Assembly (NCBI GenBank): GCA_030549855.1
Contig: JAUQQP010000030.1
Coordinates: 1 to 33,265, forward strand
Length of the DNA: 33,265 nt
Direction: 5' to 3'
From: Cyanobacteriota bacterium SRBZ.bins.94.201705
GTDB taxonomy: Bacteria > Cyanobacteriota > Cyanobacteriia > Cyanobacteriales > Cyanobacteriaceae
Below are positions 6,316 to 33,108 of this stretch, piece after piece (position 1 is the stretch's first letter; every line of letters starts with the position of its first letter). The notes beneath the pieces are model-generated. The model made no database searches. It saw nothing but the letters and a program-made list of their open reading frames with translations, and had not been told where the DNA came from. The position numbers and the translations under genes are program-made.

Positions 6316-9300
6316 TTAGAGGAGAACTTCTCCCATTATGAGTTTTTCGGCCGCCTTCAAGATTTCATCCTCCAAATAGGGTTTAGTGAAATAGGCTTTG
6401 GCGCCCAAATCGGCGGCTATTTTGCGGTGTTTTTCCGCCCCTCGGGAGGTTACCATAGCCACAGGGATTCGGGATAGGTTTTCATCCTGTTGCATTTTGG
6501 CCAGAAGTTCCAAACCGTTCATCCTCGGCATTTCAATATCACAGAGGATGAGATCGCAGGGGAGGCCATTAGAGATTTTATCCCAGGCATCTTGTCCATC
6601 CCTAGCTTGTTCAACTCTCCAACCAGCCTTCTTAAAGGTCATAGACAGCATTTCCCTGACCACTACCGAGTCGTCTACAATCAGTACTAGACGGGAGGAC
6701 TTAGGCTTGCTTTGGGCTTCCGTGTTGCCGACGGGCTGTGGACTTTGGGATTGAGGTGAGGGGGTTGCCTTATTTCTAGTGAGGGCTGCCCTACTACCTG
6801 CTAGCAATACTTCACCCTGTAGCATTCTTTTAGCGGCATCCAGTAGGTCCTTTTCCACATAGGGCTTGACCAGATAGGCAGAGGCTCCCAGTTCAGCTGC
6901 AATACGTTGGTGTTTTTCCGCACCACGGGAGGAAAGAATGGCCACGGGGATGTGTGACAGATTGGGGTCTTCTTGTATATGTTGTAGTAGTTCGAGGCCA
7001 TTCATGTTAGGCATTTCAATGTCGGAGAAGACCAAGTCCACAGGGAGGCCGGAGCGAAGTTTCTTCCAGGCGTCCTGTCCGTCTCTGGCCTGTTCTACCC
7101 GATAGCCAGCCTTGGCGAAGGTCATAGACAACATTTCGCGGACGGTAATAGAGTCGTCTACAACCAGAACTACCGGCTGAGAATGAGCGGGCATTTCAAA
7201 GATAGTGGCATTGGCGGCCAAAAGAGAAGCCCTGTCAAAACCACCGTGAGGTTTAACACGCCCTTGGGCAATTTCAATCAACTCGATAACATCAGCAATG
7301 GGCATAACAATCCCGTCACTGCGCACTGTAGCTGCCGCAATCCCCCTAGGTTTGGGGATAGGGCCAGTTATCTGTTTGACGACGATTTCCTCCTGGCCTA
7401 TAATCTGGTCTACCTGGACTGCTAGAAGGTTTTTACCCCCTCTCAGGATGACAATGGAAATGTTCTCCTCATCCTTGTGGCCCTCATACATCATAGTACG
7501 GTTGAGGGGGCGATTGTAGGTGAGGAGGGTACTAAGGGGACGGAAGGGCAAGAGGGTGTTTTTCCAGAGGATGCATTTTTGTCCCTGGGCATTAATCCTT
7601 ACCTCTTTCTTGTTGATTTCCCTAGTATCCTCAATGGCATCCATGGGGAAGGCGATGCGATGGTTTTCATTGAGGCAGCAGAGGGCCTTGCTTACAGTTA
7701 CGGTGAGAGGCAGACGGATGGTAAAGGTAGTGCCCACCCCTGGGGTAGATTCCACACTGACTGCCCCTCGGATTTCGTTAATTTTCTTGCGGACAATATC
7801 CAAACCCACACCCCGGCCTGCGTGGCTATCAGCTTGTTCCTTTGTGGTAAAACCGGGATGGAATAGAAAATCGTATATCTCCTCAAGGGTGAGATTTTGG
7901 GCTTGCTCAGGGGTGATGAGTTTATTTTGAATGGCCTTTTTCTTGATTTTTTGAGGGTCTATTCCCGCCCCATCATCAGACACAGAGATAACCGTTTGTT
8001 GTCCTTGTAGGAAAGCCCTTACAGTGATAGTGCCCATGGGAGGCTTGCCCATCTCAATTCTTTCTTCCGGCAGCTCGATGCCATGGGTTACAGCGTTTTT
8101 GACAATTTGGAGAAGAGGGTCCCAAATTTGCTCTAGAATCATCTTATCGATGAGAACATCCCTCCCCTCTATTTTCAACTGCACCTGCTTGTTGTACTCC
8201 TCAGCTATCTTACGGATAGGCAGAGGCAACCTGTCAGCGTTTTGGGCGAAGGGCACCATTCTTGCCTTGTTTATCCCTTCTTGTAGCTGTGTTGTAATCT
8301 CTCGTAAATTGCGCCCTAGCTGTTCCGTCTCGTCTACGAGGAATTGGATGTCAGAGGCAGCCTCCCGGACTCTCACAATCAACTCTATAATTTCCTGAGA
8401 AAGCAGGTGGAAGCCGGTGAAACGGTCTAGTTCCAACTCGTCCAATTCGGGGGGTTGTATTTTGGCCGTACCATTGGCCTGTTCAGAGGTAGTGGTCTTA
8501 CTCTTGCCATTGCCTACATATGTAGTACTAGAGAAATGTGTCTTAAAGGCCGCCCGATTGCGTTGTCGACTTTTAATGAGGGCCCCTTCTAACAGACTAC
8601 GCTCGTATAGTTCCTGCATGCGGGTGCCAACATCACTGAGGGCTTGGACATATTGGAGGAGATTATCCAAAAACTGTCTCAGCTTCTCTTGGTCTTCTTC
8701 TAGGTGGTTTCTCCGTACTACAATTTCCCCAATTAGGTTGTTGAGCAAGTCCAGTTGTTTTACCGGTACCCTCATGCTTTGCTCAAAGCCCTTGGCTTGT
8801 TGGGCAGTAGCCTTATTCTCGGCTTTGGGGGCTCGTGTTCCTCTTTGTACTACCCTATCTACCTGGGCTAATAGTCGATCCAAGTCGGTGAGAGTAGTAG
8901 TCTTTTGCGCCGTCAAATCGCCACCCGTCTGGGAGAGACTGCCCGATACCAGTTGAGTCAAATACTGCCAGTTTACCGGCGCCACGGGAGGAGAGTTGAT
9001 TAATGCCTCCAATTCCTCCTCACAGTCATAGTACAGGATATAGTTACCACTTACAAGGGCCTCCAGTTCATCCCAGGATTCCAACTCTAGCCATGATAAA
9101 CTAGAGGAGAGGAGGTTGGGTAACTCACTGAAGTCTTCGTAAAAGACAATTTTTATCTGGGGTTTTTGGGGAGAGAGAATCTGGAAAGTTTCCGTACTAC
9201 CAGTGTTGGGGAAGTCGTCTTCTATGGGCACATCTTCTATACTAGACACTACCCCTTGCAAGGTTTCACGGGGATCGTCTATAATCACCGTCCGACGGGC

Positions 9301-10389
9301 ACTATCGGAAATGCGTTTGCCTTGTTGTTTCTCCTCTTCCTCCCAGTCATTATCGATTATTTCCTCTATTTCCTCCAAATCCTCCGCCAAGGCGTCAAAG
9401 TCGATGGCTGTAATCCCTTCCTCTTGCGGGGAATCTGTTGCCGTTGGTTTTTCTTCTTCTTCCTCCTCGTCGCCAAAAAGACTATCCCAGTCTACCTCTT
9501 CTACCTCATCCGCCTCTGCCTCCAATACAAGTGCCTCTTCTTCCACCGCAGGTGGTGTATTCTGATGGTCTTCTTGTTTTTCTACCTCCTCCTCCAACCC
9601 CTCTAAATCCCACTGATCTTCCTCTACAGATTCTACAGCTTCTGTGCCCACCTGGCCAAACAGAGTACTAAATCCCTCTACTACCTCCGCGGCAGTATTT
9701 TCTTCACTTATCTGTGAAGTTTCCATGAAAACAGACGTAAATTCGCTTTCTATTTCCTCATTATCCCCAAACCAGGCTTCCAAGTCCTCATCTTTCTCCT
9801 CCCCAATGGTACTGTATATTTTTTCCACTTCCTCCTCTGCTGGAGGGGGTGATGGCGGAGGCGTTGGTATTTGCATTTCTATGGTGTCTCGCCACAGGTC
9901 ACCTTCTATAGTATTCTTGTAGTAAGGCACCTTTTGGGCTTGTGGCGGCTGTGGTGTGGGGGGTGTGGGTGGGGGTGCAGCTGACTCTTCCATGGGGGGG
10001 TTTTCCACATATACTGTCTCGCCACTCATCCCCTTCCCCCTGGCTTGTGGGGCCAAAGCCTGTAACTGTTCGCTTACACAAATCTGATCTATTTCGTGTT
10101 TTAGTAATAAATCAGAAGCCTTTTTTATTTCCTTGATGATCAGTTTTATGGTAGAATCATACTCGTTCTCAGGGTTGATAACAGCCTCCTTGGCCGTCTC
10201 CATTAGTTCCACCCAGCCGAAGAGGTTTTCTTTTTTCCCTAGGATGGACAGATGGTCACAGTGACTCCTGATAATTTCCCGGTTGCGACTGCTATCACCT
10301 TGTTTTAGGACTTTTAACATTTCCCCGAGACGGATGAGGGCGTTTTTGTATATTTGTTGTACCTTTTGGGCTTTTTCACTGGTAATCAT
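6316..10389 (-). CDS. CheA/PilL-type hybrid histidine kinase with tandem receivers
   Basis: A 1357-residue chemotaxis-type kinase, most like the PilL-C (Hik43) kinases that control type IV pilus motility in cyanobacteria. In order: a helical N-terminal domain (1-115), a Pro- and Glu/Asp-rich low-complexity linker (about 120-400), the CheA dimerisation helix (MRVPVKQLDLLNNLIGEIVV, about 539), HATPase (about 735-895, N box NAVTHGIE with Asn765, SDDGAGI, GRGVGLDIV), a CheW domain (about 900-1045), then REC1 (about 1073-1190, Asp1123, Lys1175) and REC2 (about 1234-1351, Asp1284, Lys1336). The N-terminal domain has His43 and His46 but no HxxKG phosphotransfer motif, so the phosphorylatable histidine probably sits on another protein. 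The two receivers are near-duplicates. GGGAG lies just before the ATG. The PilL-C ortholog call is an inference. Confidence 0.9.
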   Translation of the reverse strand: MITSEKAQKVQQIYKNALIRLGEMLKVLKQGDSSRNREIIRSHCDHLSILGKKENLFGWVELMETAKEAVINPENEYDSTIKLIIKEIKKASDLLLKHEIDQICVSEQLQALAPQARGKGMSGETVYVENPPMEESAAPPPTPPTPQPPQAQKVPYYKNTIEGDLWRDTIEMQIPTPPPSPPPAEEEVEKIYSTIGEEKDEDLEAWFGDNEEIESEFTSVFMETSQISEENTAAEVVEGFSTLFGQVGTEAVESVEEDQWDLEGLEEEVEKQEDHQNTPPAVEEEALVLEAEADEVEEVDWDSLFGDEEEEEEKPTATDSPQEEGITAIDFDALAEDLEEIEEIIDNDWEEEEKQQGKRISDSARRTVIIDDPRETLQGVVSSIEDVPIEDDFPNTGSTETFQILSPQKPQIKIVFYEDFSELPNLLSSSLSWLELESWDELEALVSGNYILYYDCEEELEALINSPPVAPVNWQYLTQLVSGSLSQTGGDLTAQKTTTLTDLDRLLAQVDRVVQRGTRAPKAENKATAQQAKGFEQSMRVPVKQLDLLNNLIGEIVVRRNHLEEDQEKLRQFLDNLLQYVQALSDVGTRMQELYERSLLEGALIKSRQRNRAAFKTHFSSTTYVGNGKSKTTTSEQANGTAKIQPPELDELELDRFTGFHLLSQEIIELIVRVREAASDIQFLVDETEQLGRNLREITTQLQEGINKARMVPFAQNADRLPLPIRKIAEEYNKQVQLKIEGRDVLIDKMILEQIWDPLLQIVKNAVTHGIELPEERIEMGKPPMGTITVRAFLQGQQTVISVSDDGAGIDPQKIKKKAIQNKLITPEQAQNLTLEEIYDFLFHPGFTTKEQADSHAGRGVGLDIVRKKINEIRGAVSVESTPGVGTTFTIRLPLTVTVSKALCCLNENHRIAFPMDAIEDTREINKKEVRINAQGQKCILWKNTLLPFRPLSTLLTYNRPLNRTMMYEGHKDEENISIVILRGGKNLLAVQVDQIIGQEEIVVKQITGPIPKPRGIAAATVRSDGIVMPIADVIELIEIAQGRVKPHGGFDRASLLAANATIFEMPAHSQPVVLVVDDSITVREMLSMTFAKAGYRVEQARDGQDAWKKLRSGLPVDLVFSDIEMPNMNGLELLQHIQEDPNLSHIPVAILSSRGAEKHQRIAAELGASAYLVKPYVEKDLLDAAKRMLQGEVLLAGSRAALTRNKATPSPQSQSPQPVGNTEAQSKPKSSRLVLIVDDSVVVREMLSMTFKKAGWRVEQARDGQDAWDKISNGLPCDLILCDIEMPRMNGLELLAKMQQDENLSRIPVAMVTSRGAEKHRKIAADLGAKAYFTKPYLEDEILKAAEKLIMGEVLL

Positions 10390-11097: not shown

Positions 11098-11970
11098 ATG
11101 AGTGATTTCTACCAGGAAAGTAAATACAGTCATCTCACCGCGATAAACCGTCGGTTTTTATCGTTTCCGGCCAAGTATTTATATTCTCAAAATAGGCTCA
11201 AAGGGAAAATATTAGACTTCGGCTGTGGTTATGGCAAGGATGTAGAAATTCTGCGAAAAAAAGGTCTAGATATAACCGGCTATGACCCATATTATTTCCC
11301 CCAATACCCCCAGGAGAAATTCGACACTATTTGTTGTTTTTATGTACTAAACGTCGTCTCCCAACCTGAACAAGAAACTGTTATAATGCAGGTATCAGAG
11401 TTGCTAAAACCAGGAGGTAAGGCGTATTTTGCTGTCAGAAGAGACATTAAAAGGGAGGGGTTTAGAAACCATTATGTCCATAATAAACCCACCTATCAAA
11501 GATTCGTTAAACTACCTTTCCCATCAGTTTACCTTGATGAGAGGTGTGAAATTTACGAGTATATCCACTACAATCAAATAGTCAGACAAAAAGTAAATGA
11601 GAATCCCCGTTGTATTTTCTGCCAACCCCCTTCTAGGTTGACTCTAATCACAGAATCAAGTTTGGCTTACGCGGTTTTTGACGGTTATCCCCTCAGCAGA
11701 GGACATAGTTTAATCATCCCTAAAATCCACCAAGAGAATTACTTTGAATTGCCCTCCTCCCTTCAAACCCACTGTTGGCAAATGGTAAATAGAGTCCAAC
11801 AAATTATACAGGAAAAATACCGGCCAGATGGTTTCAATGTCGGCTTTAATGTCCATAAGGCGGCCGGCCAAAAAATTCCCCATGCCCTAATCCATATTAT
11901 CCCTCGTTATCTGGGAGACTGTCACGGCAAAAACCACGGCATCCGCTGTGTTATTCCTCCCCAAAAATAA
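11098..11970 (+). CDS. SAM-dependent methyltransferase fused to a HIT domain lacking the catalytic His
   Basis: A 290-residue two-domain protein. Residues 35-115 form a class I methyltransferase core: motif I LDFGCGYG (39-46), an acidic residue after the second strand (GYDP, Asp63) and a post-motif region LLKPGGKAYFAV. Residues 170-275 form a HIT-family domain, starting with CIFC (172-175) and a DGYPLSRGHSLIIPKIH stretch typical of HIT hydrolases. The signature is normally P-H-x-H-x-H-x-x-P-R; here it reads PHALIHIIPR, so the middle position, which in HIT enzymes is the nucleophile, is Leu264 while His262 and His266 remain. Nucleotide binding may persist without hydrolysis or transfer. Similar methyltransferase-HIT fusions exist in bacteria, but I do not know a substrate. 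It is followed on the same strand by the cobalamin gene after 94 bp. Confidence 0.85.
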   Translation: MSDFYQESKYSHLTAINRRFLSFPAKYLYSQNRLKGKILDFGCGYGKDVEILRKKGLDITGYDPYYFPQYPQEKFDTICCFYVLNVVSQPEQETVIMQVSELLKPGGKAYFAVRRDIKREGFRNHYVHNKPTYQRFVKLPFPSVYLDERCEIYEYIHYNQIVRQKVNENPRCIFCQPPSRLTLITESSLAYAVFDGYPLSRGHSLIIPKIHQENYFELPSSLQTHCWQMVNRVQQIIQEKYRPDGFNVGFNVHKAAGQKIPHALIHIIPRYLGDCHGKNHGIRCVIPPQK

Positions 11971-12064: not shown

Positions 12065-12676
12065 ATGGCTACCAAAATTTCAGCAGAGGAATATAAAAAA
12101 AGGATGCAAAAGCGGAAAGAAATTCAGGAAAAACGCCTGGCAAAAATGAAAGGGGAAAAGGGATTAATTATTGTCCACACTGGCGATGGCAAGGGAAAAA
12201 CAACCGCCGCTATAGGAATGGTAATTAGGAGTTTGGGACATGGTTATAAGGTAGCAATTATACAGTTTATCAAAGGGGCATGGGAACCGGCCGAAAAAAA
12301 GGTTTTACAACAGTGGCAGGGACAGTTGGAATTTTATGCCATGGGGGAGGGATTTACCTGGGAAACTCAAGATAGGGAAAGGGATATAATTTGTGCTAAT
12401 AGGGCTTGGGAGAAGGCTAAATCATTTATCTTTAACCCTGACTATAGGTTAATATTATTGGATGAGATTAATGTGGCATTAAAATTGGGATATTTAAACC
12501 TAGAAGATGTAATCATTACTCTTAAAAATAAGCCGGCAAATACCCATATCATTCTGACGGGGAGAGGAGCCAAATCGGAATTGATTGAAGTAGCCGATTT
12601 GGTCACGGAAATGAAGCTGATTAAACATCCTTTTAGAGAACAGGGAATTAAGGCACAACCGGGGATTGAGTATTAG
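12065..12676 (+). CDS. cobO: cob(I)yrinic acid a,c-diamide adenosyltransferase
   Basis: A 203-residue CobA/CobO/BtuR-type enzyme that transfers the adenosyl group of ATP to the cobalt of corrinoids, a late step of coenzyme B12 synthesis and salvage in the cytosol. The P-loop is HTGDGKGKTTAA (Gly40-Thr47), followed by KVAIIQFIKG, the ERD region and a Walker-B-like LILLDEINVALKLGYL, all as in the family. The N-terminal 30 residues are Lys/Arg-rich and helical, as in longer CobO forms. AAAGG lies five bases before the ATG. I see no cobalamin riboswitch in the 94-bp gap upstream. The next gene, a GNAT, starts 41 bp downstream and has its own TATAAT, so joint transcription is uncertain. Confidence 0.95.
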   Translation: MATKISAEEYKKRMQKRKEIQEKRLAKMKGEKGLIIVHTGDGKGKTTAAIGMVIRSLGHGYKVAIIQFIKGAWEPAEKKVLQQWQGQLEFYAMGEGFTWETQDRERDIICANRAWEKAKSFIFNPDYRLILLDEINVALKLGYLNLEDVIITLKNKPANTHIILTGRGAKSELIEVADLVTEMKLIKHPFREQGIKAQPGIEY

Positions 12677-12717: not shown

Positions 12718-13185
12718 ATGGAAGAAAACGGTTTTAAAATACGTCCAGCCAAGCCGGAAGATGTAGAAACAATATTTAAACTCATTAAAGCCTTGGCTGA
12801 TTATGAAAAGCTAACGGACAGCGTCAAGGGAAATCCTGAGAGTTTAAGCAAACACCTGTTTTCCCAACCAGCCTATGCGGAGGCCATTGTAGCAGAAATA
12901 GAAGGGAAATTAGTGGGCTTTGCCCTGTTTTATCCCAACTATTCCACTTTTCTAACTAGGCCTGGTATTCATTTGGAAGACTTATTTGTGTTGCCGGAAT
13001 ACCGGCGTCGGGGGATTGGCAGCGCCCTGTTGGAATATGTAGTTTCCCTGGCAAAAAAGCGGAATTTTGGCCGGGTGGAATGGCATGTTTTAGAGTGGAA
13101 TAAACCGGCTATTGCTTTTTATGAAAAAATGGGCGCCCAAATCTTAGACGACTGGCGAATTTGTAGAATAAACCTTGACAGTTAA
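12718..13185 (+). CDS. GNAT acetyltransferase, diamine/thialysine N-acetyltransferase-like
   Basis: A 155-residue single-domain GNAT enzyme using acetyl-CoA. The start FKIRPAKPEDVETIFKLIKALADYEKL, the HLEDLFVLPEYRRRGIGSALL segment holding the acetyl-CoA-binding RRRGIG loop, and EWHVLEWNKPAIAFYEKMGA are characteristic of the SAT1/SSAT2 (spermidine or thialysine N-acetyltransferase) branch. In bacteria the substrate of this branch is usually unproven, so polyamine acetylation is a suggestion only. It ends 21 bp before the 3' end of the opposite-strand gene at 13207, with little room for a terminator. Confidence 0.88.
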   Translation: MEENGFKIRPAKPEDVETIFKLIKALADYEKLTDSVKGNPESLSKHLFSQPAYAEAIVAEIEGKLVGFALFYPNYSTFLTRPGIHLEDLFVLPEYRRRGIGSALLEYVVSLAKKRNFGRVEWHVLEWNKPAIAFYEKMGAQILDDWRICRINLDS

Positions 13186-33024: not shown

Positions 33025-33108
33025 GCGGAACTGGCGGAATTGGTAGACGCGCTAGATTCAGGTTCTAGTGTTCGCAAGAACTTTCGGGTTCGAGTCCCGA
33101 GTTCCGCA
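33025..33108 (+). tRNA. tRNA-Leu (anticodon CAG)
   Basis: The acceptor stem GCGGAAC (33025-33031) pairs fully with GTTCCGC (33101-33107), with A33108 as discriminator. The anticodon stem CTAGA/TCTAG encloses the loop TTCAGGT, giving anticodon CAG at 33059-33061, which reads CUG leucine codons. A long variable arm and a T arm (TCGGG TTCGAGT CCCGA) complete a type II tRNA. CCA is not encoded (TGG follows), as in other cyanobacteria. It has no intron; in cyanobacteria the group I intron occurs in tRNA-Leu(UAA), a different gene. Confidence 0.97.

What the first reader, a model, noticed from the sequence alone, without database searches (positions are those of the whole stretch)
11098..11970. Methyltransferase-HIT fusion whose HIT domain lost the catalytic histidine
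The methyltransferase half looks intact (LDFGCGYG), but the HIT signature reads PHALIHIIPR: the middle histidine, the nucleophile in HIT enzymes, is Leu264, while His262 and His266 and the CIFC site remain. The HIT part may be a nucleotide sensor regulating methylation, for example by binding an adenylated molecule. This is the clearest candidate here for a protein with an undescribed job.
Basis: partly seen in the sequence, partly recalled or inferred. Interest (0 to 1): 0.55.

Follow-up and report, generated by a model that had tools for sequence, protein, structure and literature searches.

The report
Methyltransferase fused to hydrolysis-dead HIT domain
Many cyanobacteria carry a methyltransferase joined to a nucleotide-binding HIT domain whose cutting histidine was lost several separate times while key neighbours stayed unchanged, so the domain probably now holds a nucleotide rather than cutting it.

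Summary
Window 11098-11970 encodes a 290-aa class I methyltransferase-HIT fusion with PHALIHIIPR; Leu264 replaces the nucleophilic histidine. It is neither an error nor a lone exception. The same-genus genome also has Leu. With the trait columns left out, the tree needs five changes of the His label, and a single origin is rejected (p-AU 0.0001). Standalone HIT controls keep the His: 76 of 76 and 30 of 30. The HIT half is under purifying selection (dN/dS 0.044-0.172 in 16 pairs). Best reading: a non-hydrolysing nucleotide-binding module of a methyltransferase, like the laboratory mutants FHIT H96N and HinT H101A. Ligand and methyl acceptor are unknown; no gene neighbour is shared widely.

The parts
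11098..11970 (+). Whole gene: class I SAM methyltransferase-HIT fusion, 290 aa plus stop
   Evidence: orthologs
11113..11577 (+). Methyltransferase half (residues 6-160)
   Evidence: Pfam; structural matches to methyltransferases over 5-160
11212..11235 (+). SAM-binding motif I LDFGCGYG (39-46); L39, D40, G42, C43, G44, G46 invariant in the 34 rows of A1
11434..11445 (+). VRRD (113-116) after the methyltransferase core; V113, R114, R115 invariant and D116 at least 90% in the 34 rows of A1
11599..11946 (+). HIT half (residues 168-283)
   Evidence: Pfam; VIA Z 14.6 to 3imi and 14.1 to FHIT 6fit
11611..11622 (+). CIFC, both Cys the same in 70 of 70; probable structural zinc ligands (ligand identity recalled)
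11728..11730 (+). His211 (PKxH), the same in 70 of 70
11848..11850 (+). Asn251, the same in 70 of 70
11869..11874 (+). Gln258 (the same in 70 of 70) and Lys259; 259 is Ser or Thr in 73 of 76 virus-contig HITs and 30 of 30 HinT-like proteins but in only 9 of 70 fusions
11881..11895 (+). Altered histidine triad H262-A-L264-I-H266; nucleophile position 264 at 11887-11889

Best explanation
The protein is a methyltransferase whose HIT half has become a non-hydrolysing nucleotide-binding module. Shown: the two halves occur as one conserved protein; the nucleophile position changed several times while the zinc-type and ligand-site residues stayed fixed. Inferred: the HIT pocket binds a nucleotidyl group (for example an NpnN alarmone, an adenylated molecule or a nucleotide-capped end) and holds it without cutting, so that the methyltransferase half can act on that molecule or be gated by it. 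I favour substrate docking slightly over allosteric sensing.
For: 58 of 70 distinct orthologs lack the His; C172, C175, H211, N251, Q258, H262 and H266 are the same in 70 of 70 and D195 in 68 of 70. Five changes of the His label; a single origin is rejected, delta lnL 107, p-AU 0.0001, trait columns left out. HIT-half dN/dS 0.044-0.172 over 16 chosen pairs, lower than in the methyltransferase half in 12 of 16; 0.062 against 0.056 in the window-sister pair. Standalone controls keep His: 76 of 76 (near copies included), 30 of 30. Of 60 relatives, 58 have a PF01230 match other than the fusion, among them the window genome and 26 of the 27 fusion carriers (the exception, G013, is 63% complete), so the canonical activity is probably covered elsewhere. 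The AlphaFold2 model has mean pLDDT 83.2 and pTM 0.83, with the HIT fold. Position 259, Ser/Thr in controls, is Lys in 11 of 12 His-bearing fusions, so the site probably changed before the His went. Precedent: FHIT H96N binds but does not cleave (passages of PMC4074825, PMC5745650); MccH H101N is inactive (PMC7157772 passage); the titles of 2fhi and 3n1t show H96N and H101A proteins with ligand.
Against: Twelve of 70 still have His, so hydrolysis may matter in some lineages. No ligand, substrate or methyl acceptor is known, and no gene neighbour is widely shared. No biochemical data. The altered Ser/Thr259 could also mean weakened phosphate binding.
Confidence: 0.62

Rival explanations
1. The HIT half is only a folding or dimer scaffold for the methyltransferase; zinc-type residues are kept for structure and no nucleotide is bound.
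For: The CxxC, His211 and His262 that I take to be the zinc site (recalled) are the same in 70 of 70; Ser/Thr259 is absent in 61 of 70.
Against: Asn251, Gln258 and His266, which I take to be ligand-site rather than zinc residues (mapping recalled), are also the same in 70 of 70.
Confidence: 0.18
2. The HIT half is still a hydrolase or transferase through another route (direct water attack, or a different nucleophile), or is active only in the 12 His-bearing lineages and dispensable elsewhere.
For: Twelve of 70 keep His; the other two triad histidines are the same in 70 of 70. Some residues do go with the loss: at a cut of 80% of His-less and at most 50% of His rows, eight do, two of them in or next to the HIT half (Ser168, Glu222).
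Against: Replacements include Ala, Leu and Gly, which cannot attack. The window protein has neither Ser168 nor Glu222, so they are not a general replacement and may only mark the large clade. The equivalent MccH mutant is inactive.
Confidence: 0.13
3. Neutral decay: the HIT half is on the way out.
For: Nucleophile lost repeatedly; one ortholog has an in-frame TAA (G034, L015/L067) and one frame ends near the triad (G055, L027).
Against: HIT-half dN/dS 0.044-0.172 in the 16 pairs, lower than the methyltransferase half in 12 of 16; seven site residues the same in 70 of 70.
Confidence: 0.04
4. Sequencing error or lone exception in this genome.
For: None found.
Against: Same Leu and codon in G001, and other non-His residues in 56 further orthologs.
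Confidence: 0.01

Closest known systems
HIT superfamily (PF01230): FHIT, HinT, CxxC-type bacterial HIT proteins and mycobacterial Ap4A phosphorylase
   Same: Fold (VIA Z 14.6 to 3imi, 14.1 to FHIT 6fit, 13.2 to 3ano), sequence over 183-271, two of the three triad histidines, Asn and Gln of the pocket, CxxC
   Different: Nucleophilic middle His lost in 58 of 70; Ser/Thr before the triad mostly Lys or Asn; fused to a methyltransferase
FHIT H96N and E. coli HinT H101A (laboratory mutants, PDB 2fhi and 3n1t)
   Same: Same position changed, to Asn or Ala, which are also natural states in this family; ligand is named in the titles of the solved structures
   Different: Made in the laboratory; not fused to a methyltransferase
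TIGR04096 dnd_rel_methyl, DNA phosphorothioation-associated putative methyltransferase
   Same: Residues 12-92 of the fusion match its positions 5-87 (7.3e-19), motif I region included
   Different: 67.9 bits against a cut-off of 150; only the start of its 478 positions is matched. The window genome has a separate true member, 738 bits
MccH-type HIT hydrolases (PMC7157772)
   Same: Natural HIT proteins with a changed triad
   Different: MccH has Lys for the third His and stays active (passages); here the middle His is lost

Membership tests
HIT domain (PF01230), by fold and sequence | Score over Pfam's gathering cut-off | tested here: met
   57.7 bits against 21.5
HIT domain (PF01230), by fold and sequence | HIT fold | tested here: met
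   model pTM 0.83; Z 14.6 to 3imi, rmsd 2.2 over 111 residues
Catalytic HIT hydrolase/transferase | Middle His of HxHxHxx as nucleophile | tested here: not met
   Leu264 in the window; absent in 58 of 70 orthologs
Catalytic HIT hydrolase/transferase | Nucleotide hydrolysis | not testable with these tools
   needs an assay
Class I SAM methyltransferase | Motif I and profile match | tested here: met
   Methyltransf_23, 58.7 bits against 27; D40, G42, C43, G44, G46, D63 invariant in 34 rows
TIGR04096 dnd_rel_methyl | Score over NCBIfam's cut-off | tested here: not met
   67.9 bits against 150
HIT pseudoenzyme (binds, does not cut) | Loss of nucleophile with ligand-site residues kept under selection | tested here: met
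   which residues line the ligand site is recalled
HIT pseudoenzyme (binds, does not cut) | Nucleotide binding without hydrolysis | not testable with these tools
   needs purified protein

The most novel reading that the evidence does not exclude
The fusion is a reader-writer of nucleotide caps: the dead HIT pocket grips a dinucleoside polyphosphate, free or as the 5' cap of RNA, and the methyltransferase half methylates it. This would be a bacterial NpnN or NpnN-cap methyltransferase, an activity seen in E. coli RNA whose enzyme was unknown in 2020 (PMC7044304, PMC7705103; passages). The E. coli enzyme would presumably be another protein.
Probability: 0.12. Interest if true: 0.85.

Novelty: new variant of a known kind. 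Interest (0 to 1): 0.55.

Why it matters
It is a natural set of parallel losses of one catalytic residue in an otherwise fixed active site, the same position as FHIT H96N, from which it was argued that the protein-nucleotide complex, not hydrolysis, carries the signal. The 12 His-bearing and 58 His-less orthologs make a ready comparison. If the pocket binds NpnN, it would tie that alarmone directly to a methylation reaction, for which a 2020 review names an unknown methyltransferase (PMC7705103, passage).

Tried and rejected
Sequencing error and lone exception: rejected. Neutral decay: rejected on dN/dS and fixed residues. One single origin of the His-less state: rejected. Widely shared genomic neighbour: none in 54 loci, many of them with only about 1.5 kb of flank. 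The commonest adjacent gene is one same-strand upstream gene in 8 of 54 (cluster 2), all of the window's family but not next to the window's own copy; the next are in 6 and 6 of 54. Its function was not looked up. Membership of TIGR04096: score under its cut-off. Link to known defence systems: PADLOC gives a ThsC HIT match (5.6e-8) and a weak mad2 match (1.4e-4), which I read as general domain similarity. Phage or plasmid copies of the whole fusion: none covers 80% of the query in 72,556 plasmid and 50,697 phage records; of the 80 virus-contig loci kept of 87 found, none spans both halves in full. A replacement residue elsewhere: none found that fits all losses. A HinT pattern had a wrong spacing and matched none of 30; corrected. 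The first pattern was too strict and matched only the window's own locus; replaced. Literature: the searches showed no paper that by its listing describes this fusion; I saw listings only (10 of the 12 papers), in the held open-access library, and older or subscription papers may be missing.

Full report
What is there. The ORF at 11098-11970 (+) encodes 290 aa. Residues 30-114 match Methyltransf_23 and 183-271 match the HIT domain, both above Pfam's cut-offs. The triad region reads PHALIHIIPR; position 264, the nucleophile of HIT enzymes, is Leu (codon CTA, 11887-11889). In E. coli HinT the central triad His, H101, attacks the phosphorus (PMC7157772, passages seen).

Distribution. Of 60 related genomes, 27, the window's own included, have a near-full-length match; another 27 have only partial matches; 6 have none. 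A sample of the class gave 21 of 388 and a sample of the phylum 40 of 386 at E <= 1e-40, all in the same order as the window's genome (the two samples share genomes). A scan of genome contigs gave 18 loci: 17 cyanobacterial by record title and one from a Bernardetiaceae MAG (L048, 52% identical; misbinning cannot be excluded). No plasmid or phage record holds most of the protein. The Bacteroidota phylum was not sampled.

Position 264. C172, C175, H211, N251, Q258, H262 and H266 are the same in all 70; D195 in 68. Among positions 172-274, position 264 ranks 8th of 103 in variability, between the fixed 262 and 266.

Controls. Of the virus-contig HIT relatives whose match spans the triad, 76 of 76 have His in the middle (75 HHH, one YHH; several are near copies of each other). 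The best 30 PF01230 loci, one each from 30 related genomes (15 of which also carry the fusion, the window's genome included), all read HxHxH. I call these HinT-like from the motif and size; the name is recalled. Lower-ranked HIT proteins of those genomes were not checked.

How often it was lost. With columns 259-260 and 264 left out, the tree of 70 rows needs five changes of the His label, starred branches force at least four, and holding the 58 His-less rows together costs 107 log-likelihood units (p-AU 0.0001). I had already seen the tree when I ran that test, though the grouping comes from the residue itself. On the tree the simplest account is five losses: the base of a clade of 53 rows (support 89/78), the window and its sister (Leu), L011 (Asn), L023 (Gln) and L061 (Asn). 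Around L011 and L023, one loss and one regain would cost the same. That His is ancestral is inferred from the controls and from L048.

Selection. NG86 dN/dS for 16 pairs is 0.044-0.172 in the HIT half and 0.056-0.248 in the methyltransferase half, lower in the HIT half in 12 of 16; for the window and its sister 0.062 and 0.056. Several pairs have dS near or above 1, the window pair included, so these are rough. The HIT half is being kept.

A second change in the site. Position 259, just before the triad, is Ser or Thr in 73 of 76 virus-contig HITs and Thr in 30 of 30 HinT-like proteins, but Asn in 30, Lys in 28, Ser in 6 and Thr in 3 of 70 fusions. Eleven of the 12 His-bearing fusions have Lys there. 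By my recollection this position contacts the phosphate or leaving group in human Hint1 (Ser107). So the site seems to have been altered before the His was lost.

No stand-in nucleophile. At a cut of 80% of His-less rows and at most 50% of His rows, eight reactive residues go with the loss; two lie in or next to the HIT half (Ser168, Glu222), and the window protein has neither.

Structure. AlphaFold2 on 34 sequences gave mean pLDDT 83.2 and pTM 0.83, with low confidence at the linker (161-170) and the C-terminus. The pTM suggests a fixed arrangement of the two halves; no coordinates were available to check which way the pockets face. The HIT half matches 3imi (Z 14.6), FHIT 6fit (Z 14.1) and zinc-bound 3o0m (Z 13.0); the other half matches many class I methyltransferases about equally (Z 11-13 in the 50 rows shown), which says nothing of the substrate. 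That C172, C175, H211 and H262 bind zinc is recalled from CxxC-type HIT proteins, not shown here.

How it most likely works. Losing the nucleophile while keeping the pocket is what was done by hand in FHIT H96N, which binds its substrate tightly, does not cleave it and is nearly as good a tumour suppressor (PMC4074825 and PMC5745650, passages). PDB holds H96N FHIT with a substrate analogue (2fhi) and H101A HinT with GMP (3n1t) (titles). Asn and Ala are natural states here. I infer a nucleotide-holding module serving the methyltransferase half, by docking the substrate or by gating. A separate HinT-like protein in the genome would do the usual hydrolysis.

The methyltransferase half. Its nearest named family is TIGR04096, but below that family's cut-off. 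A true, separate TIGR04096 protein of 617 aa lies elsewhere in the window's genome. No widely shared neighbour points to a substrate; one upstream gene recurs in 8 of 54 loci, all of the window's family, not at the window's own.

Bold reading. E. coli RNA carries methylated NpnN caps, and in 2020 the methyltransferases were still to be found (PMC7044304, passages; PMC7705103 speaks of an unknown methyltransferase). Whether they have been found since was not searched for. A methyltransferase joined to a nucleotide pocket that no longer cuts is a reasonable candidate for such an activity in cyanobacteria. Nothing here tests it.

Noticed in passing
L048:332-1498 (+): In the Bernardetiaceae MAG an HNH-endonuclease-like gene (388 aa, HNH_4 1.4e-8) overlaps the start of the fusion by 13 bases, suggesting coupling; it had no relative among the genes near the fusion in the other loci.
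   Followed up: partly
G000:C30:84000-90000 (L166:1794-3647, -): A true TIGR04096 dnd_rel_methyl protein (617 aa, 738 bits) in the window's genome. Many of the 60 relatives have a match to the methyltransferase half in a long frame that looks like the same protein, but only the window genome's copy was scanned, so a role beyond DNA phosphorothioation loci is a guess.
   Followed up: partly
L078:2187-2756 (+): A virus-contig methyltransferase of 189 aa shares VRRD and the end of the methyltransferase half (about 31% over 4-155) without a HIT domain.
   Followed up: no
window 6316-10389 (-): CheA-type hybrid kinase, 1357 aa, with HATPase, CheW and two response-regulator stretches.
   Followed up: no
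window 12065-12676 and 12718-13185 (+): Downstream genes: CobO/BtuR corrinoid adenosyltransferase and a GNAT acetyltransferase; found next to the fusion only in the window and the same-genus genome among the loci compared.
   Followed up: partly
L067:6085-6966, L027: Two orthologs look damaged: an in-frame TAA in G034 (L015/L067), and a frame that ends near the triad in G055 (L027).
   Followed up: no
window 33025-33108 (+): tRNA gene (Rfam RF00005, 52.3 bits).
   Followed up: no
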